Shown here: positions 13,824 to 64,000 of the stretch, one piece after another | Layout of the letters: every line of letters begins with the position of its first letter | Numbering within the stretch: the stretch's first letter is position 1 | Notes under the pieces: model-generated | Seen by the model: the letters and a program-made list of their open reading frames with translations, nothing else | What the model was told of the DNA's origin: nothing | Database searches by the model: none | Source of the DNA: Galdieria sulphuraria | Taxonomy: Eukaryota > Rhodophyta > Bangiophyceae > Galdieriales > Galdieriaceae | NCBI RefSeq assembly: GCF_000341285.1 | Contig: NW_005178439.1 | Location: 89,349 to 153,348 of the forward strand | Length of the DNA stretch: 64,000 bases | Direction: 5' to 3' | Made by a program: the position numbers and the translations under genes

Positions 13824-15286
13824 ATGTGGAGATCCTATTTGCTATTTTGGATAGAAAAGATTGTTGAAAGTATTCGTTTATTAAATGAGTCACCTCGAGA
13901 ACTTTGGCTTATTTATGCCATCAAGTTTTTATCTTCTTTTAGTTACTTTTCTTATTCCCTTATTCTTACTTTATTTCTGTCCAATGAGTTTGACTTTAGT
14001 GACGAAAAAGCAGGTTGGACTTATGGAGCTTATGGATTTATGTCTGTTTTATATGGAATATCTTTGGGTTGGATAGTCGACTATTTGGGTGTTCGTTATA
14101 CTTTGTTATTAGGTGCAATTATGGGAACTTTTTCTAGATGGTTATTGGCACTTTCTTCCTCCAGTCGTGTCACCGTATTTCTATTGTATACTTTTCTTCC
14201 TTTTAGTGAAAGTCTTGGTATTCCTGTTATGACAATTGGAATTAAGAGATATACCAACTCCAATAATCGAACTATAGCATATTCTATGTTTTATACCGTT
14301 ATGAATATAGCAGCTTTGGTATCGGGTCCTGTTGTGGATGTTTGTAGACGTTGGTTTGGAAATGGTTTGGTTATTTGGGGTCACTCTTTTGATTCTTTAC
14401 AATTGGTTATTTTATGTGGTTCTATTTCCACTTTTTTGATTATTTTGATAGTTGTATTGGGTATGAGAGATGTGCAATATACCGAATCCGGAGATATTCG
14501 TTCTTATCCTATCCATTCGACTCCACTTGGAATACAATTGAAAGAGGCAAGTAGTTGTGTGTATTATCATTATTCTATGATTATATAAGAGTTGATGAAT
14601 AGGTCATTGGAGATTCTACTTTTTGGAGATTGGCCTTGTTGATGTTTCTTTTGGTTGGAGTTCGTTTAGTCTTTCGTCATGTGGATGCCACTTTACCGAA
14701 ATATATGATACGTGAATTCGGTGAAGATGCTCCATTTGGTGCTTTTTATGCTATCAATCCGTTGCTAGTGATTATTCTCGTTCCTTTGGTAGGCATATGG
14801 AGCAAAGGAGTGGATTCCTTTCCTATGATATTGTATGGTTCCTTTTTAAGTGGAGGTTCAGTATTCATTCTTTGTGTGGGACCTTATTATATATGTATTG
14901 CTACTTTTTTGATTGTGTTGAGTATGGGAGAAGCCATTTATTCCCCACGTGTGTATGAATATACGATGCAAGTATCTGGTGAAGGTAGAGAAGGATTGTA
15001 TACTTCATTAGCAAGTATCCCATTATTTGGTGTAGTATTATTTGCAGGTGGAATGAGTGGTTACTTGTTGCAACATTTTTGTTCGATAGAGAAAGTAGCT
15101 CGACATTGTTCTACGATGTGGGCGGTGATTGGATTGTTTTCTTTTTCTTCGCCTTGTTTTTTGTATTTATTTCGAAACGTGATACATCCGCCATCACTAG
15201 TTATTACCAACACTCATGTGGAAAGTATGCCACAAGTAGTGACTTTTATGATCGACGATGATGATGATGATGATGCGAGGAAATAG
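13824..15286 (+). CDS. Major facilitator superfamily transporter
   Basis: The product is a polytopic membrane protein of about 470 residues with around 11-12 hydrophobic segments in two halves, the layout of the major facilitator superfamily. The loop after the second segment (GWIVDYLGVRYTLL) matches the MFS G-x3-D-x-G-R/K-type motif. Substrate cannot be inferred. The N-terminal half resembles proton-coupled oligopeptide or drug-type carriers only in general. The single intron (about 14548-14603) begins with GCAAGT rather than GT after AAAGAG; using it restores the frame (KE then VIGDSTFW). The C-terminus is a run of seven aspartates encoded by a GAT repeat (15258-15275), which overlaps the potential upstream ATGs of the following gene. 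Confidence 0.85.
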
Positions 15287-29917: not shown

Positions 29918-32171
29918 ATGGCTGTTTATCAAACACATTTAGACAAAAAGGAACCACTTATACAAAGGTTTCGAAAAGGTCGAGGATTGGGAGTATCTGT
30001 TGTAGCTTCAACGCAAGACAACGATACTCTGCTTGTTCTATCAGAAACAGATAGAGTTCAGTGTCTAGTCGATCACTCAATAGATTTGGATTGCACTCTC
30101 AAGTGGACACTGTTGATTCCACCTAGCAAAAAACTAACTTGTGTAAGTAGTGTGAGTTTGCTTAGTTTGCTTTGTATAGTGACTTGTGATATTTATTAGA
30201 GTGCCATTCCTATTGGCTTATGTGGAGTACAATTTTTAGGAGTCTTAGATGAGCACGACATAACTTTATGGGACTCTAGTACGGAGGAATTTGGAGTTTT
30301 GAACTGGAAAATTGTTGGACAAGTGCCCTATCCAGTTGCTCGTATTATTGAACTGGTGTTTGGTGCGAAAACTTGCATTCTTGTCATATCAAGTACGGGA
30401 TATCAGTTGCTAGATGGGAGTAGCTTTGATACTGTTTTTTCATTTGTATTACAAAAGTAAGTGAGGTTTTCAATTGTTATTCTTTTGAAGTCATATTTTT
30501 AGTAGTAACTGCGAACATATTTGTTCTCGAGTGGTGAAAGGAAGTGTCTTTCCTGCAAGTTTAGGATTCAGAAAGGAAAGTGATTATTGTGTGATATTAG
30601 GAGTGGTAAATCATTCACCAGATACTGGAAAAGACATATTTTTTCATATATTCGATGAAGAATGTTGCAAATGTAGAACTTTGGAATGGAATGTGAAGTT
30701 TTATGTTGAAGAAAGTACCATTCAGTCACTTATTTTCTATGAAGAACAACAAAATGATGAGATATGTAGCCTTCATTTGTGTATGTTTTGGTCATGTGGA
30801 ATATTGGAGTTTAGAATGATAACGTTTGATGGTCAAGAGCCTATTATTATCCGTCGAATTACATTACCAGGCACTGAGTTTACTCCACGGAATACTTTTC
30901 TTTTTGATTTGAGCAACGATTATTTTGGAATACTTTTCAAGGAAAGTTTACAAATTTGGCATAAGAAATGGAAACTTTGTTTTCGGAAATGGAGTGTGCT
31001 TAAGGAATTGGGTATTGTGAAGGATATAAGTCGCAGTCGTTTTTCTCATTTAGGAGACGATAATTTTTGCATTTATGGTTGTTTTGTGAATGGCTTGGTG
31101 AAATGGAATTGTGAACTTCCACAACTATCTTTATCCCAAATATTAGAAATGAAAAGAATCGAAAATTTGAATATACAAGATTTTTCCTGTATGGAACGAA
31201 AAGGACAAATATTTTCAGAAGATATGTTGGAAGCATTGTCCATGACAGATAATGATACGCGAGGAGATCTTATTATGAAAACTTTGTCTGACAAGGAAAA
31301 GGAGTGGATCAATCACATAGAACAAGGTCTTTACTCTTCCAAAGATATTTTGGAAGTTTTGCAAGAGCCCCAATCAACCAATAATTTGGATATATCTTCA
31401 GCACAAACTTCACAACATCATAAATTGTACGAAAAGCCCTCGTCTTTGTTGATTAGTACTATTTTGATGCATATTTTCAAAGTCCTAAAAGATGGAGATT
31501 TATCATATACAGCGGTGTTGGAATTTTTAGTCAAGAGACATTGGATTGACTATTCTATGATGAGAAGTTGTCTGATATCTTTGGAGAGTCAACAGAGCAC
31601 TACAAAGAATCCCATATTGTTTCCGTTTCTATGGAGAAACCATTTATTTTCTTTATGTTTGGAGTTTATGAAACACATTGTAGACTTACCACCGATCGAA
31701 GTAATCTATCTAATTCAACAAGTTTCGAACAATAGACAACAGAATTCTTTCATAGAAAATGATAATTTCTATTTAGAACAACTTTTCACTGCATTATGGC
31801 AGAGACCTTTTTCAACCAAAGATATGATGTTGGCTTTAGAAATGTTACCTTTTCGTGATGTTATACTTCAGTTACATTTATTTGAAGACGAGTTGGAAAG
31901 CATTCTTCATACGAAAAGGTGGATTTCAAAAGCTTGGATTGCGTGGATTGCTCTCATTTTGGACACCTACATGTTTGCTCTTCTTGTGGATAGCAAAGGC
32001 ATTCAACATCTTAACAATGTTTATAAGAAAGTGAAACAACTTGAACAGTTGACTGAAATAATGGTCTCTGTTGAGCCTCTTATTCGAAGTTTTGTGGAAA
32101 GGCAACAACTGTTCTTCACCAACAAAGGACAACATAAGCATTGGGTTGAATATTATTCATTCACTTTGTAA
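29918..32171 (+). CDS. NOL11/UTP8-like nucleolar protein
   Basis: The product is a beta-propeller-like N-terminal half followed by a helical C-terminal half, about 710 residues over three exons (introns near 30142-30199 and 30456-30502). The C-terminus (WIALILDTYMFALLVDSKGI, then NNVYKKVKQLEQL) resembles the last 80 residues of human NOL11 ([20 protein letters not shown], then INLYKLVKSQ), and the protein length and layout fit. NOL11 is part of the t-UTP complex of the small-subunit processome and supports rRNA transcription and processing. The N-terminal part has weak similarity only. It begins 24 bp after the NOT2 stop on the same strand. IMP4, another processome protein, is encoded 6 kb further right. 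Confidence 0.55.
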
Positions 32172-41664: not shown

Positions 41665-44151
41665 CTACTTTGTTGAAACTCTCTGCAACCAGAACAAAAT
41701 TTTCACAATGTCTTCTTCTCTAATTCTTGTATGCATTAAGTCGTCAAAAGAAATGTATTTTAGAGCAGATACCGGAAGACGTGGGAGCTTTGAAACATAT
41801 TCACGAACTTGACTTTCATCAAATCCCAATTGACGGAGAAACAAATTCCAATCAAATGACGAAGAACTGGAAGCTACAACACTTCGTTTGCCTCGTATAT
41901 TTCCTTCTTCCATTTGCATAGCACTTTGAAAACCTTCCATTTGCATCCTATTCTCCTTGTTTGTTCTCGGTCTTATATTTCGAGCCACTCTAACAGAAGC
42001 ATTTGATTGCTCAGCTTCCAAAGATGAAACATATTCATTAGACATCGACTCAAAGATAGTTTTACACCATACTGAAAAGTATTTACTGAACTCTTCTCGG
42101 CTTGCCTTGTCAATTTTCCTCAAAATATCGAAATTTTCTATTCCCAAAAATCGTTCAAGGTTCCTTTGGGAAACAACTATCAATTGCATACATGATCGAC
42201 TACTTTCATTCAAAGTTGACCCTGCAGAATGTTCAGTTACCAAATAACTTGCATCCTCAACAATATTCTGTTCTTCACTAGAGAAAACTACAGATCGACC
42301 ATAACTAGTACAAACTACCACAAACTGAAAACAAAGTTGAACAGATGAAAAAGATTCGTCATTCAAAACGGAAACAACTCCCTTAAAAAATTGTTCTGCT
42401 TCCTTCTCAATATTTCTTTTCGAAAATTCACTTTTGTGATAAAATTTAAATGAAAATCCAACAACATAACGTGTTTCACCATTATGGAATACAACATATG
42501 CATCAGCGCCACTAGAATTGCCATCTTTTGGAACAAAAATACCACAACGTTGTAAAAATTTTCCATAATGGTCAGAAAATGAATCAGAGACATTTCTCAA
42601 GATGGGTATATCATTAGATTTTGTTGATTCCATAGAATAAGAAACATTGTCCTGTTCAATAAAAGAACCCTCGAAAATTCCTGGAATAGCAGAATGCACA
42701 ATCTGCGAGGAACTAGAATGAAGAAAAGTTAATAAGCGAAAACGAAAGATCTTCATAAATATAAATTCAAAGAAGACTCCCTTTGCTGTTGAAATGTCGG
42801 AAATATAACTAAACGGAGATAAAGGCAAGAGTTCAGTAGCCTCAAGGAAAAAGTTATAGTTGCTATGAGCTCTCAATATAAAATCACAACAACCAATCTT
42901 GAATTCAGTGCCCAAATCAATCCCGTCAGTTTCACAAATTTCAAAGTAAAACCCAAAAGTTGCAACCAAGTCCATCAAATAACTTCTCGTTCCACATAGA
43001 GTAATTACAAAGTCAATTGGAAAAACTGTCCCAAGCTGATAATTCAAAAGGACAAATTGATATCGAAGAAGGGTTGCGGAATCTAGTATCTCTGGAATAA
43101 TAAACGTTACTGACTCTAGTAGTAAAGAGCTAAAGACACTATCTAACAAAAGTTCCATATTGTCATCGTTGGTAACAGGTTGCGATAAGTTTGAAACTTT
43201 CCCTACTAGGGCTAATAAAGTATTCCTTACAATCAACGGAATACCCCCTGTCTTCTTCTTCAACAATTCTACGAATCGATATCGTAATTCATCAAAGGGC
43301 AATAAACAGTCCTTCAAGGACTTTCCATCATAAGTTGCCAGCTCAAGATATTCGTTAATATCATGGAGGTTAAAGAGATTCAACCGCAACATACGGAGAC
43401 TCACTCTACTGGAGCGAGCATCAGACAAGGGGGCTGAGATTTCAGCAGTTCGACCTGCCACATAGACAATTACCTTCCCTGTAATCAAAAAACTACGTAG
43501 AATGCGGAAGAAATTCCGGAAAGGTACATATTTTGGGTCAGACTCAAAAAACTGTTTCGTGGTAAGTTCACTATAGTATGTGGTGAGGTAACTCAGGTGG
43601 CTAAGTTCGTCTATCATCAAAAATAAATATCGTTTCTGAAATTGTTCGAGAAGCCAATTAATAGCTCCTACAATATCAAAATTCTTTACCGTCCTTTCAG
43701 CTATTTGAAGAGCGTCCGCATCTTTACCATTTTGTCGGTAAGCGTTCAAAATAATATTATACATCAAAGCCTTTCGAAAACTTGGAAAAGGAGCATCAGA
43801 AAAGCTCTCTCTTAGTTCTAAGATAACTGACAAAGTTTGTTCCGCAAAGTGTTTCCAAGGCACCTTCAAAGCACTCGGTTGGGGGTTATCGTTTGAACTG
43901 TGTAGTTGTTGAAAAGCCTGTGCATTGGAACACTCACGCTCTGCAAAAATATTCAAATAGACCAAAAAGTTTTGGCCTAGAAATGTTTTGCCGGCTCCAT
44001 AAATATGCGGCGCAAAACAGCAAGCCGGGCGATTGAACGAAGGCCCACCGTACGCCTTCTCCGAGAACTGAAAAAGAAACGTCCGTATAATTGTCCTGAC
44101 GTCCTCTTCCCTGTCAATTTGTGGTTCTTTTAAGCGGTATATTGTTTGCAT
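41665..44151 (-). CDS. P-loop NTPase fused to a restriction-endonuclease-like domain (CR/Crinkler-RHS-like)
   Basis: This is an intronless 828-residue protein; the frame opens at 44205 but its first ATG is at 44151. Visible in order: Walker A YGAGKT (residues about 51-56), Walker B YLFLMIDE (DE at 181-182), a V-A-G-R-T strand (231-235) and a TGGIP motif (301-305) like the GxP motif of STAND ATPases. The C-terminal half has the order E (FFE, about 462), D (GADAYVVF, 550) and K (GFSFKF, 569), as in a PD-(D/E)xK nuclease, although the acidic residue before K is replaced by serine. The last 65 residues (LFLRQLGFDESQVREYVSKL) look SAM-like. NTPase plus REase-fold nuclease is the architecture described for Crinkler/RHS-type proteins; function here is inferred only. 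Its broken relative lies 3.4 kb to the right. Confidence 0.65.
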   Translation of the reverse strand: MQTIYRLKEPQIDREEDVRTIIRTFLFQFSEKAYGGPSFNRPACCFAPHIYGAGKTFLGQNFLVYLNIFAERECSNAQAFQQLHSSNDNPQPSALKVPWKHFAEQTLSVILELRESFSDAPFPSFRKALMYNIILNAYRQNGKDADALQIAERTVKNFDIVGAINWLLEQFQKRYLFLMIDELSHLSYLTTYYSELTTKQFFESDPKYVPFRNFFRILRSFLITGKVIVYVAGRTAEISAPLSDARSSRVSLRMLRLNLFNLHDINEYLELATYDGKSLKDCLLPFDELRYRFVELLKKKTGGIPLIVRNTLLALVGKVSNLSQPVTNDDNMELLLDSVFSSLLLESVTFIIPEILDSATLLRYQFVLLNYQLGTVFPIDFVITLCGTRSYLMDLVATFGFYFEICETDGIDLGTEFKIGCCDFILRAHSNYNFFLEATELLPLSPFSYISDISTAKGVFFEFIFMKIFRFRLLTFLHSSSSQIVHSAIPGIFEGSFIEQDNVSYSMESTKSNDIPILRNVSDSFSDHYGKFLQRCGIFVPKDGNSSGADAYVVFHNGETRYVVGFSFKFYHKSEFSKRNIEKEAEQFFKGVVSVLNDESFSSVQLCFQFVVVCTSYGRSVVFSSEEQNIVEDASYLVTEHSAGSTLNESSRSCMQLIVVSQRNLERFLGIENFDILRKIDKASREEFSKYFSVWCKTIFESMSNEYVSSLEAEQSNASVRVARNIRPRTNKENRMQMEGFQSAMQMEEGNIRGKRSVVASSSSSFDWNLFLRQLGFDESQVREYVSKLPRLPVSALKYISFDDLMHTRIREEDIVKILFWLQRVSTK

Positions 44152-47581: not shown

Positions 47582-49704
47582 CTATTGCCAACTTAAGAAA
47601 CTGTTACGGATTCTATCAAGTAAATCTAATCCAAAATCCCAAAAAGTAGGATTATGAGAAACACCAAACGCTCTTTCAAGTCCATTCAAAATTTCGTCGT
47701 CAATCAGCATTTCGACATCTCTTTCACAAAGAATAACAAGTTCACAATTATCAGGTACTTTGAAAAAATCATCTCCAATAAACATTCCACTGGAGTAACA
47801 ACGACTCTGATTACCCAACTCATTAGAAACATTCAATGATAACTTTGTACTAACGATAATAAGCATACAATGATGAGAATCCATTGCACTGGATAAGACT
47901 TGATCATAAACAGGATCTAAAAATTTCTTGGCTTCATCTATAATATCTGACCAGCCAATTCCTTCCGACTTCCAACGTCCTTTACAAGCAACTCCAACAG
48001 TAAGAACTTTGGGTTCCACAGGAGATTGTAATTTGAATATAATATCAGGACTATGAGAAGTAGCGTCCAAAGGAATGTAAACAGTCTCTAAATAAAGTGT
48101 CTCTCGAATAATCTTATTCCATTCAGTACTGGCAAAAGTTCTTCGACTCTTGTTCGATTCATTTCTTGTTTCTCTAGAACTAACAACAGACTTCATATAG
48201 TGAATAGGTGATATTGTACTGATTGGAAGTTTCATTTGTTTCCATATCGGAGACAACTGACACAACAATTCCCTCAACTCATTTCGATTCTTTGAAGACA
48301 ACATCAAAACTAGTCGTAAAGCAACAATTCCTTCAAATACACGACACTTTGAATAAAAGAAACAATCTACTGGTTCGACATCAAGTGATCCAAGAAGTAT
48401 CTTTTCCAAAGAAGAGATGGAAGGGTCCCTCTTGAAGATTACAACAAATACTTTCGGAATTAGGACTTGAAAAGTATTCTCGTCAATAGGATATCGATAT
48501 AATCCCATTTCAGTGACTGCATCATATAAAAAGGACTCCGAGGTCAATCTATCATCTACTTGAAACGGTATACGATAAAGAGCCATCATCAAAAGTAAAT
48601 CAAAAACACTTCTTCTATCTTCGTCCAAATTCAATATTCGTTCCACAAATGGTTCAGCACAAATTATTCGGAAATCGTAGTCATTCATACAAGTCAAACA
48701 TTCTTCTTTCGATATGAAAGGCTGATTTCTTGCTACTATATAATTCAAAAGCATATTTACTGCACGAGTCAACAAACCAGGAACTCCACCTGTACATTCC
48801 AACAACGAATCTGCCAATTCATTTACTGAAAATGAAGAACTACATAAGACATTACAAACCGGAACTTGAGTAGGTGTCTCAAGAAGACTCTTTTCAAGGA
48901 ATTCAACGATACTGGAAGCGTCCAAAGGTGATAAAGAAATAAAATGTAGTATAACTCTTGATAGCCAAAAGACACATAATTCTTAATACTTAAACCCTTG
49001 CTTTTCCCAACAACAATAAAAAACAAGTCGGGTTCTTCGCACAATTGACTAATGATACCGAAAAAGTCATTGTAAGGTCGAACTACACCGTCATCGGTCC
49101 TCCCCAAATGAAACAAAGTCGAGACTTGCGTCAAAGACACCAACTTCATCAAATGCCAACAAAAGACATTGATCAGAAGGAATGCCCAAAATCTTCCGTA
49201 GCTCTGGAACTAGAAAGCTTGGATAGGGAGGAATGTGTCTGAAGGCTTCATCAGGCTTCATAAACGGTAGACCCATCTGATAACAAGCAGACCGGTACAA
49301 CAAATAGTAGACTGCCCACTCAAGGTTGCGTTATTACGGCGACGGGGACTGTGGACTCCAACTCCTTCAAAAACAGCAAAAAAGCAACGAAGCCCTCTTC
49401 AAAAACTCCAAAAAGCTAAGCTTCAAAGGGTCTGAAGCAAACGTCGACAGAGAAAATTCACCAAACCTTTGCACAAAGCTCCAAGAAAGGTTCGGGCAAA
49501 GGTCGTTTTGCCCGAGCCAAAAAGATGGGGGGCAAATGGTATCGTCAAGCGATAGTCGCAACTACTCGTTACACCCCTGAGTTGTTCTCTGTTGCTATGA
49601 AGATCATACAGTTCTTCTGTCACTCGAAAAACATCTCTTTCACGATCTACCACAACAGACTTAAACTTGACAAAAGCTTCCCACTTTTCATCCAAACTCG
49701 CCAT
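47582..49704 (-). pseudogene. Frameshifted relative of the P-loop NTPase/nuclease gene
   Basis: The same domain order as in the gene ending at 41665 is found, but scattered over frames. The first ATG (49704) leads to a Walker A segment APHLFGSGKTTFARTFLG, equivalent to APHIYGAGKTFLGQNFL in the other copy. A second frame (49303-49091) has Walker B LLLAFDEVG; a third (near 49100-48980) has NDFFGIISQLCEEPDLFFIV VGKS; the last (to 47582) is 447 residues and holds CTGGVPGLL, a FFYSKCRVFEGIV helix with the expected E, and HSPDIIF...VGVACKG for the D and K of the nuclease. At least three shifts separate these pieces and I found no phase-compatible introns, so decay is the likelier reading. The intact 447-residue part could still be expressed from an internal ATG. 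Confidence 0.6.
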
Positions 49705-52700
49705 CGCCAAAGAGAAATTAAACAATCTTCTGCTTATTTCGGAGTACAAATATAAATAAACGAATGACTTGTTTGTCGGTCACAACAAAAACAATGGAAA
49801 AAAACAATAAGGATACCAATCCAACTTCTTCTCTGTATCAACTGATGACTATGTCATACCCTTTATGGCTTGGACTGAGATGACCAGAACAATGGAAGAA
49901 CGATCAATATGGCTTTTTCAACTATCGATATTCTTATTCTCGTATGCTAATACAATGGCAACTCTCATAGGGTACAAGAAGGATTAGAAGGAAGCCAATG
50001 TTTATTTCACAAGTTTTTTATGCTCTTTGAGAGTATAAAGCTATTAAACATGGCCCATTCTCAAATAGATAAGAAAGTTTCTTTCAGAATTTTCGAGAAT
50101 AGTCAAGAGAGTTCCAAGCAATATAGATTGTTCATGAAGAATTTGTTCCATAGACGTCTCTCTCTAGATTAACTGTATTTTATAGAACAGTTTTTACGTC
50201 ACTTTTGCTTCATTTCGAAACACGGAACTAGAGTATGAACCAAGTCATTCTCTTCTACAGTCTATTCAAAAGCTCCAATTGAAATATTATTATTTAGTAG
50301 AAATGCAGAAACCCGCAAGCACAACACTCCTTTATTCTCAGCAATCACCAAATTCCTTTCTTACGATATCATGAAACTAGCAGCTTATCACTAAAGCTAC
50401 AAAAGTTGATGATAGCAAAAGACAAAACCAAAACAAATGTGCAAAGAAGGATCCAAAATATCGCGTGGTTTTATCAAATCTCAGAAACAACATTGACTCA
50501 CACAAGTGTATCATCAATACTCAATTTCTGTAAGAGTCAATAACTCCTGTTTCTTTCTCCTCTGAAAATAGTGGCATTTGATATTGTGGATTCTGTTAAG
50601 AGGAGAAAAGATATTTTCAAGAAAAATTCAATTCAATCGAATTGAGTCTATTCTAGCGACTCTCTTCTCGTATCTTGTCATTGCATATCATTTGAATCAT
50701 AGTTGAATTCTTTCTCCTCAATAGTCGACTATACAGTTGAAGAGTTTTTGAAGGTAAACATGACTGTTTAGGTTTAAAGGCTTTTGTTGCATCCTCTTGT
50801 ACGATAAACTTTGTAAAAACCACAACTTTTAAAGATATACAAGAAAGCAAACTATAAAAAGTACAAAGCTGCTTTAAAACGAGATAACTCCAAGAGGGCT
50901 ATTATCTCTTCCAATATAAAAAAAGGTAAAACTTTTAAAAGCTCTGCAAATTCAAAGAACGATTTGTTCAGCTGCAGTTGAGTCCTACTATTTTTCTTCC
51001 ATTCTCAACCATCAGCTCGTTGAATAAGTGAGTCACTATACAAAAGTTCCTTGCGTTAGGCACTTGGAAGAAGACTCTTGCGAAATATAACCTGATGGGT
51101 ACACTAGTAGAGGCTTCCTTTTGGACATTGGTAACGAGAATCAAAGACAACCCAACGTTTCGTTTAAAAAACGGGTCTATCAATAGAAGAAATGTTCATT
51201 TCTACTAGGGACAAGTCAAACTTGAAAAAGAAGAGAAACGCCTTTTTATCCAAGTTGCTCTACAGAGAATAAAAATGTCGTCAACTCGCAAACAATATTC
51301 AGCAGAATAAGATAACACAAGTTATCTGATTCTTTTGCAGAGTCAAAATCTTAAATGATATTTTGGTTGTTATCCAAACCGGTAAAGGTCTTGTTCTTTT
51401 AAATATACTGGATCAATTTCGTCTATTAGTAAAGAAAAGAATATAAACGTAGAAATAATGGAAAAATAAGAATCTTTCATTCTCTTCTTGGCAAAGTAAT
51501 AAAGAAAGGTGAATCTTGAAACATATGTGCAAGGAGAACCAAAAGCATCACCACTTTTACTGTTGTTATACCAGTCAAAACTCTCTACAAGTTCTTTATG
51601 AAGAGAACAAAGCGAGACCCTTGTAACTTTTGAGGCTCGATCCTCCTTATCGTAAGTAGTTTGTGTACGTATTTGTGTATAGACAAAAGTATTCCCAACC
51701 TTTGAACAGTTTTTTATTATAGCCCTGTCCTCTGTATACTTTCCAATTCTAGAGTTGAATATACGATTTATTATTCTTTATAACTCGTAATCGAACAAAG
51801 ATTGTTCCTTGAGCGTAATTTGCATAAAAGGAAAGGTTCTATCTCTCACAATGCAAGCCAAACAGAGTAAATGTCAGTGAAATTGGAAAATGACCATTTT
51901 ACATCTTTAAGGAGTTTTCCTTAATTTTGAGTGACCAACAAAGAAAGGTTCTCAGATCGAGAACGAGTCAAAAGCTGGTTGTAGCAAAACCCGTTCTTGA
52001 TTTGTTATCAAAATAGGCTCACAAGTAGTTTGAAATTTACCTTGCAGAGACAAGATTGATCAAACTCAACTCTGTTAAAAGGCTACAGTGTCGCTAGGGA
52101 GTTGAGAGGACCTTTGTTACGACACTGTTCTTCTCGTTTCACAACAATACTGAGATGTGAGATTGATTGTATCTAGCACACTTAGTGTTCCAGAAACTTT
52201 TTACATATCTCCAAGTGGAATATTTTCTTTCATAAAACTCACTAGTCACTCAAAATAATATATCTCCAGTGAAAGGAGACAATACAAAGCGATCCTCCTC
52301 ATAACAATCCAATTAGAAAGGAACACAATGGTTTGATTGTTGGATAAAGGGGAAGGCTCAGTGAGTATTGTCAAGGCTGTGGACCTGGTTCAAGTTTGCT
52401 AATGAAACTTTCCAGACTTTAATTGCTAAAACAAATTCTTCGTTCGTTTTAGGTGGACAAGTGAATTTCTATTATCTACGTTTCCTTTTAAGCCCTGCAA
52501 ATGTTTCTTTTAGAACAATCCATCGATTCCTGAGCTCTGAGTTCCGTGTAGACTGTAGTTTCTTTTTAGTATGTACAAATTTTATCATCTCTTTGGAGTT
52601 TATATACTTTATGCAACAATTCTTGTTATTTCACTTCTGGTCTTGTATGGAAATTTGAGATTAGCGTTGTCGAGAAGAGAACAAAGACAAAGGAGTTTAA

Positions 52701-55700
52701 GCTGTCGTTGAGTGTTGGTACTTTAGTCAATTAGTTGTCTCGCAAGTTCATTCAGATTTAGTTTTTACTGATAACTGTTGCAGAGCAATTTTGTGTATTT
52801 ATTAGCAGTTTACAGTCTAGTCTTGTAGTCGATCGTTGAGAATCAGCCTTGGGTTGATATTTCAAAGATATTCTGCAAGAAAGCAGTTAGACTCTCAGTT
52901 GAGTGTTTTAGTCAGTACAAGAACTATATTCCGTATAGTAGTTTTCTTTGTCTTCTATGTGACTCTTTTCACGATGGAGAAATCGGTCTGTAACTCTGCA
53001 ACAGGCATTTCTCAGGATAGCATAGGAAAGTCTTGAGTCCATCATTGCTTATTTTAATGGTTGTTTGTATTGTTGTGCTTTTAGATCAATTCTCTATTGA
53101 TTCGAGTATATATTTTGAAATATTATTTGCGGATCCTTAGAAAACGACACGCATAAGGTTTGACAGTTTTTGAAAACGAAAGCTGAATAAACTTATTTTT
53201 TGAAAGCACGGAAAAAGTTTTCAGTTCAAAATATACTCACCTGTTTGGGAACCACTAAAAAAAAAACAAGCAAAAGAGCACTGTTGAAAGTCATGGTTAA
53301 GTCCACCTGATAAAATGTTTTGACGATGGCGACTGTAGCTATTAGTCCGTTTTGAGAAACGCCTTTGTTTTATGAATTATTGGGTTTACCGAGGGTGAAA
53401 TATGTCTAAAAGGATATGTGAATAGTAAGAGTGATAAAGTTGGAACTAGTATTGATGGTGTTTCTGAAAGGCATCTATTGCAAATCGTCTTTGGTACTTA
53501 TATAGTTGAAGAGGAGGATAACAGTAGTAGTACGGTGTGAATGGGAAACAAGGCGACTTGTGTATAACAGTATTTGCCTTTTCAAGAGTGCTGCTGATCT
53601 GTTTTTTTCCAACACACTGAAAGTCATGCTGTTGAAAGTAGTGGTAGTTGTAGCTGTCAAAAAGTGAAAAGGAAACACAACATTTTGTGCAAACAGCTTG
53701 CGTTTGGATAGTATACAAAGTAGCTCTAAAAGAAACTCACGAAGGATGGGGAGAACTTCTACAATGTTACACAAGTGCACACATCGATGTCATCGTGTCC
53801 GACTAGAGTTTTTGGTTCGACTCTGAAGATAAAGTCCAACTTTTGATAGACAATTCCTAGAAAGCATACGCAGACGAACAAAGTAGTTTGCACATTGACA
53901 CGAACCTAAAACATTTTTCTATTATCGCAGCAAAATCAAACCACTCGCCACTACTTGAAATTCAACCAGAACAGCAACAACAACAAATATGAGCCCAAGG
54001 CTAGTAAAGTATGGCACAGTCATCAAGTCTACAAAGAGAATGATTCCCGCTTCTATCTTTTACTCTTTTCTTCGTTGTTGGCATGAGCGGAGAATTGCAA
54101 TTGTTTTAGTTACTTGGATTTGTAAAATGACAGCAACGACAACAACAAACAAGAGAAAGTCATAGTGTATTGGTTAGTGGTACAGGAATATTAATAATAG
54201 ATTTTGTCATAAAAGTACGAATTTGACCTATTTTTTACCATAAAGGAAAATTGAATTGTTGACTTTACAAAATAAAAGGGCATTATTTGCACACTTACGA
54301 CTATTCCTGTACCTTGCTGTCGGTAGAACTAAATACGGTTCTGATTTTGAACAACAAATAGGGTATCGAGTTGCTTTAATGGTCGATTTTAGATTTTTCT
54401 TGTACCTGTTTGAGACCAATCTTTATCTTTTGATTCTTGAAACGAACTTATTTGTTATCTCATGATAGTATGATGAAGAACTAGTCGTCATTTCTTTTCC
54501 GAAAACGTCGACGTAAAAACTTTTCAGAAGCTTATTTCATTGGAAATCTCAATCAAATAGAATCTCTTTGTCCCGTGATAGTTGTGTTGCATTTGTAGGG
54601 ATGTGTAACTCCAAGTGATCAATTCGCGACAATCTAGTCTGTTGAATCAATTAATCTTTGACAAGTGAATTTGCAGTATCATGAGAGTGTACAACATACT
54701 GTTTTCTGTGATCTAGAATCTACTACTGATTTATCTTGATATATTGTATTGTTCTTATGTCGAAACTAAACCTTATGACTATTTATGCTTCAGAACAATT
54801 CCATCTTACATCTTCGACCCTAAGACCAGCTTCATATGAAGTAGTCATCTAGCCGATAAGGATAAGATAATATCTCTATCTCGTTTTTTCTCTTCTTTAT
54901 CGGCGTAATTGTAGAATGGTGAAGATCTTGTTTTTTAGAGTTGTAATATGTTCTTACAAGAAAAGGGACGAATATGATAAAAAATAGCATTCAAAGACTG
55001 CAAGATAACGTAAATTCAAAAAAAAGAATCAACTATATTGCAGACAAAGTTCTATACAAACGATCTGCTGGGAATAGAAATTGAACTTGTCCTAGTACGA
55101 CCTACTGATTGTTTTCCCTTATTCATATGAATTGTCATGAAAGACAAAAATTTATGTTTCACATAGCACATTTTTTTCAATGAAAGAATATAGAAAGGTC
55201 AGTTGAAAGAAATTCAAGGAAAAGAAGTAAATGAATGCTTCTCTGGCTTCACGGGGTTAGATATCAGACATATGATGTACAGATTTTGAGGTTGATCCTC
55301 ACAAAAAGCAGAATCAGTTCTGTGCTTTTTACACAAGTAGCAGCAGAACATAAATTGATAGTCATGTTCTAATTTCAGGATCTTTTTGTATATCCTTTGA
55401 TTCTTGAACCTTTTTACAACCTTTGGTGGTTTTCATCCACCTCTTAATCTTGGACTATTACCACAATTGATTCAAGTGATAAATGACAATGTATTTATGC
55501 CATATCAATACCTTGTTTCTATTGATGTGTTGAATTTGAATCTTATTTTAGTGTGATATCCGAAACAATTCTGGTTATAGCTGTATTGAAGTAAGCAGTA
55601 ATCATTTGCTTTAGAGTACTACTCTGAATCTTACCACTTCTAGTTAAATCTCAACGGGATATGGCACAATTATTCTAGTAGATACGTAAGAAAAGGTTTA

Positions 55701-58700
55701 TTTGGTTTCTTCCTTCTCAACGTATCTAGAAACTGGTTACTGTTTTATATTACTTGAATTGTATACTGAATTCAATGATTTACTGTTCAATGGAAAGAAA
55801 GTAAGATGCCTCTTGGTATTGCTCATTTAAAATGACTTTTTGTGTAAGAATTGGTTATTGGTTGATTACTAGTCGAATATCTCATCAAGATGAAATTCTG
55901 TTTCATAAGTGAAATGTCCTCTATGGTTGATTCAACTTTTGAATTCCTAGAGATCATACTGAATTTATCGAACTCGTTTAGTCCGTATCCCGGGAAAAAC
56001 GATATGCCATATAGTATTAATAGTAGTAGTATTACTAAGGATACCGAGGCTTAGCTAAATAAATACTTGGTTTGAAAAGAACATAGTAGTAGCAGAGTGT
56101 CCAATTAGTCCTCCCAAACATTTGCACTTTATTTGCGATACTAGTTACGATTTTTCGATCATTTCATCCTAGAAAGCTTCACGAATCGACTCAAGCGATG
56201 AATCGCATTATACCTTTGCAGCGCCACGAATCTGTTACTACTAGTTTATATATTTTGATATTAACTGGTTGTTTATTTAGATATATTTGTTGCACTGTAT
56301 TTGATTCAAATGATAACTACTTGTTTTAAAGTACCTTTAGTTATATCATTTCGTTCCAACCAAGCATCACTGGGTAAGCTATAGTCACTTCGCAGACAAG
56401 AATCTAATATCAGATTTCAATCTTTTTTCAAGATTTACATTTTAATGCGTTGATCGTTAGAAACGTTCAAAGTTGACTAGTGAAATACAGCCCTAGTAAT
56501 GAATGGAGTCAATGTGTTAGACAAGATAACGGCACAACTCGATGCACAAAAAGTTGAATCAACGTTTCCATTCAAAATCAATTGTTTGATAGGAAGACTA
56601 ATATACGTTGTTATTTTTTAGGGGTATCTAAAAGAGAGTTGGTTGAATTGTCATTAAGTGGACATTGGGTTATCCAATAGAACTTCTGCTAGATAGTGTT
56701 TGTATAAGATGGCTACTTTAAGGTAGAATTGATACTTTATTGACTACTAGTTGTCGAGTGGATAAAAACTTTGTACCTTTGCACTTGAAATCTTGCTGTT
56801 GTATGTACAGAGTCTTTATATCCGAAGCAGTGTCTTATGTGGTCTTTAGGCACCCTATATGCTTGATTCAGCGTCGAATTGTCCAAGATTATCTTGAATT
56901 GTCTAAAATAATCTAGTCCTTAACCTAAAAGGATGATTTACAGACTATTATTTGGATCACTTAGAATCAAGTCGAAGATGAATTCATTCGAGAATCACTA
57001 GGTGAGAATCCGAATTGTAGCAAAGCATCAATCTTTCCTTGATTTTTGTATGCTGTTTGCAATATTAGGGTAAGCCGTTGTCCATAATTCAGTTAAGGTA
57101 CATTTGTGGATTGACTTTCATATAGAATGACAATGTATTTCTAGAATATTGAGAACATGTTACTATGGATGGGCATAAATCAATCAGCATCCACTATTCT
57201 TGTATCTGTACGGAATTCAATTAGACTTTGTTTGAATCCAATTGTTCCTATCAATATTGGTGGAACACGTTCTCCTTTTACTGCCTTGGCACCAAGCTCA
57301 ACTTGCGTCATAGAATCATCACTTTGTGGATAAAGATACTATGTTAAAAGTCTATTGCTTGTTTCTATTGACTGGTCGGAGAGTAGTCATCATCTTGTTA
57401 TCTTATCTTTTCAAGAAAGTCGGAATAATTACATAAAAACTAAAAACTGAACTTTAATTGAAATAAAGTATCACAGCGATAAACTATACTATTCATATAC
57501 TACAGAATCACCTGATTTAGAAGAAGACTCAACTAGATTGCAGACGATTGGTCACAAAGGAGCTGCAAAAAGAAGCAAAGTAACCTTGCTGATACAAGCT
57601 ATTGAATCTCTTTGTCATGTTGAAATGTTGTATATAGTACAAGATGAAGAAAATGATTCCTTTCATTTCAACTTTTATACAACTCGCTAAACAAAAAAAT
57701 ACAACAATTTGCTTTGAAAGAAAATATATGATGAAAGATATAAAGTGAAAAAAGAAAAAAATGGCTTCCTAGTTTAATAGACTACAGAGATAGTGTTATG
57801 AGCCAAAAGTCTTGACTTTGATTCTCTCTAGAAACATCGACGATACTCTTGTCGTCATTAATAGAAAAAGTATTCCCTAGTAGTATCTCATACTGGTAAT
57901 AGTAGAGCGTTTATGGCATTTTGTTTTGTTTATCCATTCTACTGATATGCATGACCTGTATTTGAACACCATAAGATAAAAAGTAGGCTGTTGAAACAAT
58001 ATGTTTAATGTTTGTGTATTTCATGGCATCCCTAATCGTTATAAATTGTCCAAAGCTTCAAAGACCTGATTACTGTAGGCATTCTTTATCCTTTTCACAC
58101 TCACCTTATTCTTCTTCTTCCCTTTTTTTATATCTAAAATGAATATCATACAATCCTCACTGATAGAATACAATCAAATTTCTATTCGAAAAGGTAAAGT
58201 TTAGAATAAAGCAAGGAATACACAATCTTACTTGCAGAATCATTATTTGCATCTCTGTAGATATTATTCTCTATATAGCTGTAACTTTCTTTACTAGTTT
58301 GGAAAGTGTAGACAACAACATTCATAGAAAGAACAATATCAAGTTTATGATTCAACTCGATCTCGACACTAGTATTCCATGAAGAAGGATATCACTCATC
58401 ATAATACTCGACGAATGGTTTTAGATTCGAACTAATCAATCTAATCTCAATCGAACAACTAAACCGGACCACAAAGAAGCTTGCATATATTTACATTCCA
58501 TTGCAAAAATCATTGAGGTCTTGGTACAAACTGGCAGAAATGATCACAAAAGCAGAATTTACTATCTGATTTGCACATTTGACGACAACAATAACAGCAA
58601 CTCTTACAAGAAATAGGACAACACTTCTCACTACACCACTATTCTCGAAGAGTCATAAACATACCATTTCTTCTATAGTTCGTCATTTATTTAGAATTGT

Positions 58701-60783
58701 GAATGGTGTTTTACGACCACTCGCTTTGCCTATATTAAAAACTCAATACGTCCCTCAATTGTGGAACGGATACATTTTTCTATCTAATCGACAAGACTAG
58801 AGACAATAGGGATATGAGCTAGTGTCCAGGAATCAGTTTAAATTCAACTGATTTCAAGATCATAGTTTCGGCTATGTTGAATCGAGTTTAAACTGTATTG
58901 AGTGGAGAAACAAGCGACTGTGCAAAACAGGGCAATCAACCATCAAACTAGTGAATAAGCCAGGTGCTTTGCTTGAGAGAATCAGAACAATGTCGGATTA
59001 AGAGCAATTTATTTTTTCTTTAAGCACCTTTCATTCTCTTATTCACGGAGCCTTACCTATAGAATTGCACGAGTCCGTCATAAATAGAATATTATTGGTT
59101 TCTGTCATATCATTCATGCCTAAAGACAAGCTCGATTTTAAGTTGCAGAAAGAGGGACTGTAATCTATCCTGGCCACTTTTGTATTGAACTTGGTGTCAA
59201 ATAGAACGACTTGACCTTGTCCATTTGAATTCATATTTTCTTATGAATACTGTATTTGAAGAGTACCTATCATATGCTATTCGAATTTACCCTTAGCTTT
59301 TTTTTCACTGTTTATCATACAGCTCATCCTGTAACTTAGTTCATAAAAGCCTTGGTATCGTTGAGACTATCAAGTTTTATGGCTATGAATTGTACAGTTT
59401 TGATAGAACCAAGTTGTCACCAATCTGTTTCATCAAGGATCGATTTGATAGTGGGACATAAATAATGCCGCAGCTAACTACAAAATCATAAACATACGAG
59501 ACAATTCAACTCAACTGAAAGGAACTGTATGCTCAGCAACTTTTAGAGATCATTACCATTTTAAATAGAAGAACGCAAACATTCGGTTTTATGTTGTTTG
59601 AAAGATTTGAATCCACACGACAACTTGAGAAGATTGACGAAGAAGCACTTTGATCCTAACCTTTGATTGTTAGTACTTCAAGTCATGCTGAGACATATGG
59701 TTATGTCCGTTTACTTCCTTTGGTGAAAAAAGTTGTCCCTTACCTTTGTTATATTAAGCTATTACAAAATCAAGTTAATAACCTGGTACAGCTTTTACTA
59801 GTACAGGATGCCTTTCACAGCAAACTCTTTGTTATCTTTATGGATGAAGAATTGAGTTTGGCTTGTATTGATTCATTGACTGAATGATTGATTGCTTTAT
59901 GTCATACTAGCCTATTTATTCATCAACTGACAAATAATTGCACTTGGACTTGTGAAATTGACTGATTCCAGTATTTGAGGAATAGTAGTTGGTCAATTCT
60001 ATTCAAAAAGGTGATCTAAGAATTCACTTTAGACAGATTGTTGTTTTGCGAGTCAAAGACAAGTTGTACCATAGAAAAAGATATATACAAGGTAAGTGAT
60101 ACAAATAGGAGTAGTTTCATTGTGCATTCTCAAGCTGAATACGGACTGGATTGGACAGTGCTAATAGAATAAAATGGGTTGTTTGAACCACACTGGGTTG
60201 TCCGTCTATTACGAGTTCTTTAGCTCATCAAGATACTTTATCATGGCACTATAAAACTCTCTGTCCCATAAGAAGAGTCGTTATACCCTAGACTTTGGGT
60301 CATATAGTATTTATATATCCTCAATAGTCTATTTAATACCGATTGCTTCACGACTGTATGGATTTACTGGAAGAATTTACCCAAGTAGACTTGGCAGACG
60401 ACATTCCAACGAGTACTAGTATTCTTTCATCTAAATACACAGAGGACAATCTAGTTGATAGTTTTCTTGACAAGAATCATAACTAGAGAAAATCCCCACA
60501 TTCTCTCCTCATAGTTGCAAATAACTTTCTAATACTAAACAGATCGTTGACCGAAACTCGTTTGAATCCATTGTTTCCAGAATTGACCCAATGTTGAATC
60601 ATATTGCTATACTCTAAAATGAAGATTTTGTTGTTGCCATAGGGTCTGATTCTGCATAATATGCTGAGCACCAATATACACACTTTTTACTGATTGTTTC
60701 TGCTAATGGGAAAGATGGGCAATTTGGAAAGAGTGGCCAATTAGGAATGGGCCCGCGCAATTTTGACTTGAAAATTGCCATTA
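49705..60783. other. Long gene-poor subtelomeric region
   Basis: This is about 11 kb of A+T-rich sequence with no recognisable gene on either strand. Short open frames exist but lack homologues I know: 58579-58800 plus (HTISSIVRHLFRIVNGVLRP), 59043-59234 minus (FCNLKSSLSLGMNDMTETNN) and 59663-59887 plus (LLPLVKKVVPYLCYIKLLQN). I saw no tRNA cloverleaf, rRNA, transposase signature, long terminal repeat or CRISPR array. Absence of a call means only that nothing was recognisable by eye. Confidence 0.5.
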
Positions 60784-61230
60784 TGGGTATGGGGTGGGAA
60801 AGAATGGGTAAATTGGAAATGGGAGAGAGTGGGGAAATTGCCAAGGGGAAAATGGGTGGGGAAAGGGGCCAATTGGGGCCAACCCAAAGGTGATTGCGTT
60901 GATTTGAAAATTGCCATTGTGGTGGGCTGGGGAAGAATGGGTAAATTGGAGGAAATGGGAGAGAGTGGGGAAATTGCCAAGGGGAAAATGGGTGGGGAAA
61001 GGGGCCAATTTGGGCCAACCACAAAGGTGATCGTGTTTTGGAAATTGCCATTGTGGCGGGCTGGGAAAGAATGGGTAATTGGAAATGGGAGGGGAAATTG
61101 CGATGGGGGAAAATGGGTGGGGAAAGGGGTTTGAGGAAATTGGAGAAGAGGGCCAATCCAAAGGCGATTGTGTTGATTTGAAAATTGCCATTATGGATAC
61201 AGGGAAGAATGGGTAAATTAGAAATGGGGA
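60784..61230 (+). repeat. G-rich minisatellite, 133-138 bp units
   Basis: About four units share AGAATGGGTAAATTGG at about 60801, 60934, 61068 and 61206 (spacings 133, 134 and 138 bp). Each unit continues with GGGGAAATTGCCAAGGGGA, GGTGGGGAAAGGGGCCAATT and AAAATTGCCATTGTGG-like segments. The plus strand is strongly G-rich with many GGG and GGGG runs. Long proline-rich open frames on the minus strand (FPHPFSPWQFP) are a by-product of the repeat and not treated as genes. Confidence 0.85.
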
Positions 61231-62059
61231 CATTTGAAATTGAGGACAGTGTGCAAAGAGGACTGAATGTAAATTGAAAATCTTGGGAGAATCCGTACAG
61301 GAAGGGTGTTTGAAAAATTCCAATTCGAAAAACAAAAGATTGAAATTTGAACTACAGTTCTATTCTATGAGATAATAGTAGTAGAAAGTTTAATTACATG
61401 CTGTTCACATAATGTTTCCATGCTTTCATGATACATTTTTACTCTAAAATAATCTTCTTATAAAATTTCTAAAGAAAATATAATAACAATTTAATATAAT
61501 TGATTGAAACAATGAAAGCATTATTAAAAAATTTGATCATTGACTTAATTTTTAACTGTTACAATGAAATGTTCAAAGTAAATATTATATAAACACAAAA
61601 AACTCAACAAAACAAAAAAAGAATTAATTTCAAAAAGACTATATTAATACAGTATCCACTAAATTGACAAAAGCGAATAATTTTTAGTTTAATTTCAAAA
61701 TACTTACTAAAAATATACACAACAAAAATAAAAACGATCAGCAAAATTTGATAACAACCTTGACAAAAAAATATAAACACGCAATAAACGTAAAGATTGT
61801 TCTTCAAAAATTAATAACTTTAACAGTGAATATCAGTCTATCAGAGAAACGAGTGCATAGTCGTGGAATGTATAAAAAAAGTTTTTTACTCAAAGAAATA
61901 GACATATCTAAAGTGATTAAGTAAAATGGCGCAAAAAAATAATAAACGAACTTAAAAAAGACAAAGAATTGCATCTGGTAAATTGCCATTTGATGAGAGA
62001 ATATGTGTGGGTGAATGAAATGGTCGATTGCGGGTAAAGGATGGTAGTGCAACTTTGTT

Positions 62060-62400
62060 TTAAAAATTGTCATGGAGTGTGTGGATGGGGGGAAAGAAGG
62101 GGCCAATTGGAAGTGGAAGAGGATTGGGAGCAATTGTGAATTGGAAATTGGCATGGGGGAAAATGAGTGGGGGGAAGGATTGGGGCCAATTGAGAAGAGA
62201 GGGGTCAACTCGAAATGTGGATGGGCAATTGTGATTTTGAAATTGCCATGGGGGAAACTGAGTGGGAGGAAGGATTGGGGGCCAAATTGGAGAGGGGCAA
62301 CTCGAAATGTAGATGGGCAATTGTGATTTGGAAATTGCCATGGGGAAAAATGAGTGGGAGGGGAGAAAGGATTGCGGGCCAATTGAAAAGACAGGGGGCC
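62060..62400 (+). repeat. G-rich minisatellite, 92-95 bp units
   Basis: The block corresponds in position to the G-rich block of the first macro-unit but has a shorter internal period. GAAATTGCCATGGGG-like landmarks fall at about 62145, 62240 and 62332. Units contain ATGAGTGGGAGG, GGATTGGGGCCAATT and CAACTCGAAATGTGGATGGG. Confidence 0.8.
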
Positions 62401-63289
62401 AACCCTACAGCGACTTAGATTTTGGGATTTACCATTATGAGTGGTAGGGGAATAATGGGTAAATTGAAAATGGGAAGGGCATTAAAAACTGTCAGGGCAG
62501 TGTACGAAAAGACAAAGTAATTTGAATTGAGGAAATTAAGAAAATACAATAAGGGTGTTTGTGAGATATTCAAATTTTAGAAGTAGAAGAGCAAAAGCTG
62601 AAATTCAATTATATTTTATGAGATGGAGGTAGTAGTAAGATTGACGACATACTTTTCACGCAATATTTCTATATTTTCATAGTAGAACCTCAGTCAAAAA
62701 TAATCTTCTTTAAACTTAATAAAACTATGCTAACAAAATACTATAGTTAATTAAAACAATGAAAAAATAAAAAATTTTAATACCGCCTTGATTTTCAAAG
62801 CTTATATGTTAATGATTCAAAGTAACTTCTATTTCGACACAATAAATTGAATAAAGCAAAAAAAAATTCCATAAAAATAAATAAATAAAAAAAGTAACTA
62901 CTTAATGGACAAGAGAAGATAATTCTTTGTTTCAAAGTAGTTACTAAAAATAGAAACCAAAGATGCAAAAATAATTAACTAGAATGAATCGCAACATAAA
63001 CAAAAAAGACTAGAATCATACAATTAGCGGAAAATTTAATTTTTAAACTTGAGCAAATTGCAAAATAGATTCCAATCTATGCGAGCGATATGACACAATT
63101 TTAAATGATACACAAAAAGAAGTTGCATTCAAGGAATTAAAGGTGTCCAAAAATATTGAATAAGATACAGTTTAGAAATAAAAATAATAGAAATAAACCG
63201 AGAAAACCAAAAATTGCAATAACTTTACTTTTTAAAAAGTAGAGTAATTGTGTAATGTCACGAAGGTCAATTTTCATATGTTATGGTTA

Positions 63290-63332
63290 TCAAGTTATAT
63301 TAAGTTATATTAAGTTATATTAAGGTATATAA
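63290..63332 (+). repeat. Short tandem repeat, TTATATTAAG units
   Basis: Three to four 10-bp units (GTTATATTAA) lie immediately before the third G-rich block. Copies are nearly perfect, so the run is likely young. Confidence 0.85.
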
Positions 63333-63399
63333 AGTTTTATGGGGGATACGCAATGGTCGATTGCAGGTAAAGGATGATAGTGCAACTTTGGTTTGAAAA

Positions 63400-63790
63400 T
63401 TGTCTTGGAGGGAATGGGGAAAAAAGGGGCCAATTGAAAGTGGAAGAGGGATGGGGGTCAATTGTGAATTGGAAAATGTGCATGGGGGAAAATGAGTGAG
63501 GGGAAGAATGGGGGCCAAATTGGAAATGGGGCAACTCGAAATGTGGATGGGCAATTGTGATTTGAAAAATGCCATGGGGGAAAATGAGTGGGAGGGGAGG
63601 AAGGATTGGGGCCAAATTGGAAATGGGTCAATTCGAAATGTGGATAGGCAATTGTGATTTTGAAATTGCCATGGGGAAAATGAGTGGGAGGAAAGATTGG
63701 GGCCAATTGCAATTGGGAAGAAAGGGGGCCAACCCAGAGGCAGATTGTGATTTTGAAATTGCCATTATTGTTGGTGGGTGGGGAAGGATG
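63400..63790 (+). repeat. G-rich minisatellite, third block
   Basis: This repeats the 62060-62400 block with landmarks at about 63472, 63566 and 63663 (94 and 97 bp). It again carries GGATTGGGGCCAAATTGG and CAACTCGAAATGTGGATGGG, and ends in a GTGGGGAAGGATGGGTAAAT segment similar to the first block. Confidence 0.8.
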
Positions 63791-64000
63791 GGTAAATTGG
63801 AAATGAAAAGGGGCATTGAAAACTGTAAGGGCAGTGTCAGTGTATGAAAAGGACAGAGTAATTTGAATTGAAACATTTAAGAAAATACGATAAGGGTGTT
63901 TGTGAGAAATTCAAATTTTAAAAGTAGAAGATCAAAAGTTGAACTTCAATTATATTTTATGAGATGGAGGTAGTAGTAAACTTGACGACGAACTGTTCAC

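What the first reader, a model, noticed from the sequence alone, without database searches (positions are those of the whole stretch)
41665..44151. Intronless P-loop NTPase with a C-terminal nuclease-like domain at a chromosome end
Seen: Walker A YGAGKT, Walker B IDE, a TGGIP motif, then E...D...FSFK in the order of the PD-(D/E)xK fold, and a SAM-like tail. Known: Crinkler/RHS-type (CR) proteins pair a P-loop NTPase with a REase-like domain and occur in oomycetes, fungi, trypanosomes and some algae, often in variable chromosome-end regions. Inferred: this is a red-algal member, possibly acting in element control or conflict rather than infection. Serine in place of the acidic residue before the lysine raises the question whether it still cuts.
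Basis: partly seen in the sequence, partly recalled or inferred. Interest (0 to 1): 0.8.

Follow-up and report, generated by a model that had tools for sequence, protein, structure and literature searches.

The report
Subtelomere-type NTPase with nuclease-like domain
A real, fast-evolving algal gene, with a related copy beside it, encodes a protein that probably binds nucleotides and may carry a DNA-cutting-type domain; it may belong to a puzzling gene family at the chromosome ends of a hot-spring red alga.

Summary
The gene is real: an uninterrupted 828-codon minus-strand frame (41665-44151) with neighbouring genes' codon usage. The listed motifs are present: Walker A, Walker B, TGGIP, D550...S567-F-K569 and a confidently modelled five-helix tail. 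A diverged second copy lies at about 47582-49704; its N-terminal match beats 1000 of 1000 shuffles. It keeps the NTPase motifs, D and K (serine becomes alanine) and a helix glutamate, but has no tail. No significant match was found in Pfam, NCBIfam, PADLOC, PDB, phages or plasmids; Crinkler membership is not shown. AlphaFold failed outside the tail, so the nuclease fold is unproven. A comparison with archaeal Mrr nucleases puts D on D and K on K (1 of 400 permutations as good), but the reversed query scores the same. The closest known thing is the 211 'archaeal STAND ATPases' reported beside Galdieria telomeres; the host as Galdieria is inferred. Most likely it is an NTP-switched, nucleic-acid-targeting protein of a subtelomeric conflict family.

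The parts
41665..44151 (-). Intact gene, 828 aa (P0001)
44107..44115 (-). DRE box (D13-E15) upstream of Walker A, also in the second copy and in many archaeal ATPase_2 proteins
43984..44007 (-). Walker A HIYGAGKT (49-56), His in place of first Gly
43606..43620 (-). Walker B LMIDE (178-182)
43447..43458 (-). AGRT after a hydrophobic stretch (232-235), sensor-1-like
   Evidence: reading as sensor is inference
43237..43251 (-). TGGIP (301-305), GxP motif of STAND-type NTPases
   Evidence: motif meaning recalled
42862..43104 (-). Middle region (about 350-430), winged-helix-like pattern by eye
   Evidence: inference only; aligned with the second copy
42082..42798 (-). Nuclease-like region (452-690), helix-strand-strand-helix-strand order in poor models
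   Evidence: (low confidence)
42766..42768 (-). E462 in FFE, candidate helix-A glutamate; lined up with FE of the second copy only by hand, not by MAFFT
42502..42504 (-). D550, candidate catalytic aspartate
42445..42453 (-). S567-F568-K569, D/ExK position with Ser in place of the acid
42400..42408 (-). E582-K583-E584, candidate moved acid; E584 is conserved in the second copy, E582 is not
41668..41871 (-). Five-helix SAM-like tail (761-828), absent from the second copy
47582..49704 (-). Second, diverged copy; frame broken between about 49460 and 48950 (introns or decay)
49504..49527 (-). Second copy, Walker A HLFGSGKT
48779..48793 (-). Second copy, TGGVP
47660..48367 (-). Second copy, nuclease-like region with FE, PD (D313), ACK (K334) and DEA (E350), numbered in the 466-aa frame
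60709..63691 (.). G-rich tandem repeats, subtelomere-like

Best explanation
A lineage-specific STAND-type P-loop NTPase with (inferred) winged-helix middle, a PD-(D/E)xK-like domain and a SAM-like tail, one of a diverged tandem pair, probably a member of the 'archaeal STAND ATPase' families of Galdieria subtelomeres. Proposed mechanism: NTP binding or hydrolysis switches the protein, it assembles (in this copy through the tail), and the nuclease-like domain binds or cuts nucleic acid, used against invading or selfish DNA. Shown: gene, motifs, paralogy, modelled tail helices. Suggested only: nuclease fold. Inferred: winged helix, oligomerisation, target, conflict role, host genus, family.
For: Coding frame and motifs. 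Second copy, same strand and motif order: N-terminal piece 70 against 31.4+-4.4, 0 of 1000 shuffles; C-terminal frame 60 against 41.2+-5.6, 10 of 1000, highest of 36 window frames of 150 aa or more; NTPase-end part 2 of 2000. D, K, KSE and EA conserved among 49 identities in 218 aligned columns. Two-copy domain profile against an archaeal Mrr profile puts D on D and K on K: 18.7 against 10.99+-1.84, 1 of 400 permutations, 0 of 42 other window pieces, the best of which gave 17.9. Best Mrr matches of the single copies fall on FE (P0001, 7 of 25 permutations) and VACK (second copy, 9 of 25): right places, ordinary scores. Whole profile against DUF234-type ATPases: best hit is the D..K strand pair, K on K, 1 of 60 permutations. 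Tail modelled confidently. Literature: 211 archaeal STAND ATPases, next to every telomere by that paper's own unpublished data, no hits outside the species (PMC6629376, section 47 read whole); duplicated in subtelomeres (PMC9812998, passages). No relative found outside the window.
Against: AlphaFold poor outside the tail (mean pLDDT 37.6 and 36.0); fold searches gave nothing at E<=0.001. Reversed query scores 18.8 against Mrr, as high as the real one. The Mrr profile was picked for a D..[E/Q]xK pattern, which favours that motif. The nuclease part alone is weakly similar between copies (105 and 152 of 2000); two middle fragments gave nothing (299 and 65 of 1000). Domain profile against the DUF234 domain alone: 4 of 25 and not at the active site; an unrelated AAA profile: 1 of 25. 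A hand alignment joining the FE helices did not raise the Mrr score (18.5). NTPase profile fits ABC and NACHT (32.6 each) as well as ATPase_2 (31.2). The D/ExK acid is absent in both copies. The second copy has no tail, so tail-driven assembly cannot hold for the whole family. No Galdieria sequence was at hand.
Confidence: 0.45

Rival explanations
1. A true Crinkler/RHS-type (CR) protein of a red alga: NTPase, HTH and REase of common descent with the oomycete, fungal and trypanosome families.
For: Same domain order as most Phytophthora CRN C-termini, NTPase + HTH + REase; [quoted passage not shown] RHS proteins are tied to variable chromosome regions (recalled).
Against: No Pfam match at E<=10 for P0001, only sub-threshold matches for its pieces. 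The order also fits archaeal ATPase_2-DUF234 proteins. Common descent not testable here.
Confidence: 0.2
2. A regulator with a dead nuclease-like domain: the domain binds DNA or protein but does not cut.
For: Acid of D/ExK lost in both copies (Ser, Ala).
Against: D, K and a helix Glu stay conserved between copies, as expected if the site is used; CCGG enzymes work with PDX21-53KX12-13E (PMC4652773, passages).
Confidence: 0.3
3. A STAND-type NTPase whose C-terminal half is not a nuclease at all (other alpha/beta domain); D and K are coincidence.
For: No confident fold; reversed query scores as well against Mrr; other sub-threshold matches such as LAGLIDADG_3, E 0.021.
Against: Positions of D, K and FE in separate comparisons; 1 of 400 permutations.
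Confidence: 0.35
4. Horizontal gene from archaea (ATPase_2 with DUF234), since diverged.
For: A DRE-like box before Walker A, as in 21 of 25 and 14 of 23 archaeal sequences; profile match spanning DRE box and Walker A, 0 of 60 permutations.
Against: ABC and NACHT profiles score equally, on Walker A; spacing DRE to Walker A is 36 and 40 here against 22-26 in nearly all archaeal cases (34 of 35); 0 of 345 archaeal genomes match the two-copy profile, though the tool warns that without a positive control this shows nothing; HGT origin rejected in PMC6629376.
Confidence: 0.2

Closest known systems
Galdieria subtelomeric 'archaeal STAND ATPases' (211 in G. sulphuraria 074W; OG0000000, OG0000001, OG0000003)
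   Same: STAND-type NTPase, chromosome-end-like place, no relatives found outside, strong divergence of neighbouring copies
   Different: Not comparable by sequence here; the passages I read mention no nuclease-like or SAM-like domain
Crinkler/RHS-type (CR) NTPase-HTH-REase proteins
   Same: Order of NTPase and nuclease-like domain; possible HTH between
   Different: No CR header found; SAM-like tail extra (recalled as not typical); common descent untested
Archaeal ATPase_2 (PF01637) with DUF234 (PF03008)
   Same: DRE box, Walker A and B, GGxP, then nuclease-like C-terminus
   Different: No Pfam match; Walker A begins with His; long insert between FFE and the D strand; tail extra
Mrr_cat (PF04471) PD-(D/E)xK nucleases
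   Same: D and K positions line up in profile comparison; FE matched separately
   Different: Q/E of the xxK motif replaced by Ser or Ala; no significant Pfam match
CCGG-family restriction enzymes (NgoMIV, Cfr10I, BsaWI)
   Same: Candidate acid moved to a helix after the lysine (conserved one at X14 and X15 here; family KX12-13E)
   Different: No sequence relation shown; spacing differs by one to three residues

Membership tests
STAND-type P-loop NTPase | Walker A | tested here: met
   HIYGAGKT and HLFGSGKT, first Gly replaced by His in both; best N-terminal profile matches to ABC, NACHT and ATPase_2 fall on it
STAND-type P-loop NTPase | Walker B, then sensor strand and GGxP motif | tested here: met
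   LMIDE, AGRT, TGGIP in order; LAFDE, VVGKS, TGGVP in the second copy; pattern only, no significant family model
Archaeal ATPase_2 (PF01637) | Match to the Pfam model over its cut-off | tested here: not met
   Not listed at E<=10 for P0001, nor for its N-terminal part or the two second-copy pieces
Crinkler/RHS-type (CR) | CR header domain at the N-terminus | tested here: not met
   No Pfam match; only 48 residues precede Walker A and they hold the DRE box; upstream exons not excluded
Crinkler/RHS-type (CR) | NTPase + HTH + REase order | tested here: inconclusive
   NTPase motifs met; HTH by eye only; REase suggestive
Crinkler/RHS-type (CR) | Common descent with CR NTPases | not testable with these tools
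   No eukaryotic genome collection; CR effectors of crop pathogens were deliberately not fetched
PD-(D/E)xK nuclease | Conserved fold | tested here: inconclusive
   AlphaFold mean pLDDT 36.0 for the domain; secondary-structure order fits
PD-(D/E)xK nuclease | D and K of the active site | tested here: met
   D550 and K569, conserved in the second copy; their role is inferred
PD-(D/E)xK nuclease | Acid two before the K | tested here: not met
   S567, and Ala in the second copy; helix acids at X12 and X14 (P0001), X14 and X15 (second copy)
Galdieria subtelomeric STAND ATPases | Sequence similarity to the three orthogroups | not testable with these tools
   No Galdieria sequence held; own genome not held
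Galdieria subtelomeric STAND ATPases | Adjacent to a telomere | tested here: inconclusive
   G-rich repeats at 60.7-63.7 kb; no match to a recalled telomere-like motif
SAM domain | Five-helix bundle with long last helix | tested here: inconclusive
   Five helices, the last the longest; SLA1 chain 3idw E 1.5 and Pfam Death E 0.11, neither significant

The most novel reading that the evidence does not exclude
The hundreds of 'archaeal STAND ATPases' that flank Galdieria telomeres are NTP-switched nuclease-like proteins with a rearranged active site, some with a SAM-like assembly tail: a chromosome-end conflict or immune arsenal of a red alga, convergent with or related to Crinkler/RHS proteins, rather than heat-adaptation genes taken from archaea.
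Probability: 0.25. Interest if true: 0.75.

Novelty: new member of a known kind. Interest (0 to 1): 0.5.

Why it matters
Galdieria's 211 subtelomeric ATPases have no demonstrated function and a disputed origin: called archaeal imports tied to extreme habitats, then denied as HGT (PMC6629376 section 47; PMC9812998 passages). A nuclease-like domain would give them a testable biochemical activity and link the chromosome ends of a red alga to the Crinkler/RHS and prokaryotic NTPase-nuclease conflict systems.

Tried and rejected
Single-sequence and two-copy searches of viral and genome contigs, tblastn of phages and plasmids and a profile search of 345 archaeal genomes gave no relative. PDB sequence searches of P0001, the A2 profile and the tail gave nothing significant (best E 1.5, 0.18 and 0.063). 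PADLOC (P0001 only), NCBIfam and Pfam gave nothing; sub-pieces gave only sub-threshold Pfam matches. Foldseek hits of the two poor models (acetyltransferases, terminase nuclease, Mad2) are treated as meaningless; one, 9q28_I (probability 0.84, E 0.75), may reflect the tail, but the aligned region was not printed. Calling the second copy a certain pseudogene was rejected: a splice path with 3 GT/GC-AG introns of 185, 58 and 47 bases keeps all four NTPase markers in frame. Filing under Crinkler was rejected for lack of any tested defining match. The Mrr evidence was downgraded after the reversed-query control.

Rows dropped: 15 of 25 Mrr loci used (picker: D..[E/Q]xK pattern within 600 bases of the locus centre); 23 of 25 DUF234 loci and 25 of 25 ATPase_2 loci; of 25 loci brought by the NACHT search I took 7 as NACHT (6 usable), 15 as 'ORC-like' (my label, from frame length, untested) and left 3 out; 25 AAA and 25 ABC.

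Full report
Observation. The stretch 41665-44151 is an uninterrupted minus-strand frame of 828 codons from ATG. Chance of an open run of 846 codons (from the upstream TTG) at this base composition is 3.3e-28, and its codon score (0.060) is like the 3 of 7 neighbouring genes scored leave-one-out. Two additions: a DRE box (13-15) before Walker A, and His in place of the first Walker A Gly.

Second copy. tblastn of the protein against the window gave a weak hit at 49680-49483 (E 0.010). Reading that region showed a second copy on the same strand, about 3.4 kb upstream of the start codon, with FAPHLFGSGKT, LAFDE, VVGKS and TGGVP, the last in a 466-aa frame that also holds the nuclease-like region. 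Significance: N-terminal piece 0 of 1000 shuffles; C-terminal frame 10 of 1000 and top of 36 window frames. Two middle fragments gave nothing by themselves (299 and 65 of 1000), and the nuclease part alone is weak (105 and 152 of 2000). Order and strand of all parts make paralogy safe in my judgement. The second copy ends before the tail, and no tail-like stretch was found elsewhere in the window (best E 4.5 by tblastn and 0.25 by phmmer). Whether this copy is spliced or decayed is open.

Nuclease-like domain. The two copies share PxD, D550, VVG, K569, KSE, I and EA among 49 identities in 218 aligned columns of this domain. P0001 reads D-X18-K with acids at X12 and X14; the second copy PD-X20-K with acids at X14 and X15. 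Of these only E584 of P0001 is matched by Glu in the alignment. The position two before K is Ser in one and Ala in the other. The FE pair is lined up only by hand. AlphaFold, run twice (the cap), failed: mean pLDDT 37.6 for the whole protein (3 rows) and 36.0 for residues 452-690 (2 rows); the helix-strand order fits the fold, at a confidence that proves nothing. Profile comparisons with archaeal families: against DUF234-type ATPases the best match of the whole two-copy profile is the D..K strand pair with K on K and D off by two (23.8, 1 of 60 permutations); against Mrr the domain profile puts D on D and K on K (18.7, 1 of 400 permutations, 0 of 42 other window pieces). Against this: the reversed query scores 18.8, hand-anchoring gave no gain (18.5); the domain profile against the DUF234 domain alone gives 4 of 25, away from the active site, and an AAA profile gives 1 of 25; my Mrr picker favoured the motif. 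I hold the nuclease fold at about 0.6 and actual cutting at about 0.35.

Does it cut? CCGG restriction enzymes use PDX21-53KX12-13E, with the second acid after the lysine; for BsaWI a shifted Asp is proposed and its mutation matters (PMC4652773, passages). A review states that D/E or K is recruited from elsewhere in some enzymes (PMC4081073, passages). The EA of both copies lies in that neighbourhood (X14 and X15), so loss of the acid does not by itself mean a dead enzyme. This is a resemblance, not a test.

NTPase. By profile the N-terminal part fits ABC and NACHT (32.6 each, on 11-13 columns around Walker A) as well as archaeal ATPase_2 (31.2, 46 columns that include the DRE box); AAA 24.8, DUF234-type ATPases 21.3, ORC-like 18.6. 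A DRE-like box was found in 21 of 25 and 14 of 23 archaeal sequences, usually 24 residues before Walker A, against 36 and 40 here. The protein is STAND-like in motifs; no closer assignment is possible.

Tail. Residues 761-828 are the only confident part of the model: five helices, the last the longest. Sequence hits (SLA1 chain 3idw E 1.5; Death domain E 0.11) are not significant. A helical bundle of SAM or death type, hence assembly, is likely but inferred, and the second copy does without it.

Host and known family. GC is 0.33-0.42 per 2 kb; several genes are eukaryotic (SRP68, ORC5, sortilin, NOT2/3/5); one intron of about 56 bases was read by eye. This fits Galdieria (36.9-40.2% GC, intron-rich; tables) but is inference. 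In G. sulphuraria 074W, 211 'archaeal STAND ATPases' fall in three orthogroups, have no hits outside the species, and lie next to every telomere, the last on that paper's unpublished data (PMC6629376, section 47 read whole); Nat Commun 2023 reports their subtelomeric duplication (PMC9812998, passages). The target matches in kind, in likely place and in isolation; sequence proof needs Galdieria data, which these tools do not hold. The one open-library paper that names both Galdieria and Crinkler is by its title about white rust of Arabidopsis; only its listing was seen. Two further literature searches showed me no paper that joins the two subjects among the 15 listed in each (29 and 2,584 matched). 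The primary CR paper (recalled as Zhang et al. 2016, looked up by a recalled DOI) is not held; what I say of it comes from passages of a review (PMC5289972).

Mechanism committed to. NTP-dependent switch (motifs shown) -> assembly, here through the tail (inferred) -> nuclease-like domain acts on nucleic acid (suggested) -> conflict with invading or selfish DNA and fast diversification at chromosome ends (inferred). Overall 0.45, lowered from 0.50 after the missing tail of the second copy was noted.

Noticed in passing
window 49083-49140 and 48955-49001: Candidate introns of 58 and 47 bases (the second with a GC donor) would join Walker B, the sensor strand and the C-terminal frame of the second copy.
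   Followed up: partly
window 60709-63691: Three arrays of G-rich tandem repeats (periods 136, 92 and 97) and a duplicated block 62019-62659 / 63352-64000 at 84% identity.
   Followed up: no
window 50000-60500: About 10 kb without any listed frame of 150 aa or more between the gene pair and the G-rich repeats.
   Followed up: no
window 14547-14602: MFS gene appears, by eye, to be interrupted by an intron of about 56 bases with a GC-AG look.
   Followed up: no
window 30531-32171: 546-aa frame with no Pfam match at E 0.01.
   Followed up: no
window 42082-42798 (-): Sub-threshold LAGLIDADG_3 match (E 0.021) in the nuclease-like region, probably chance.
   Followed up: no
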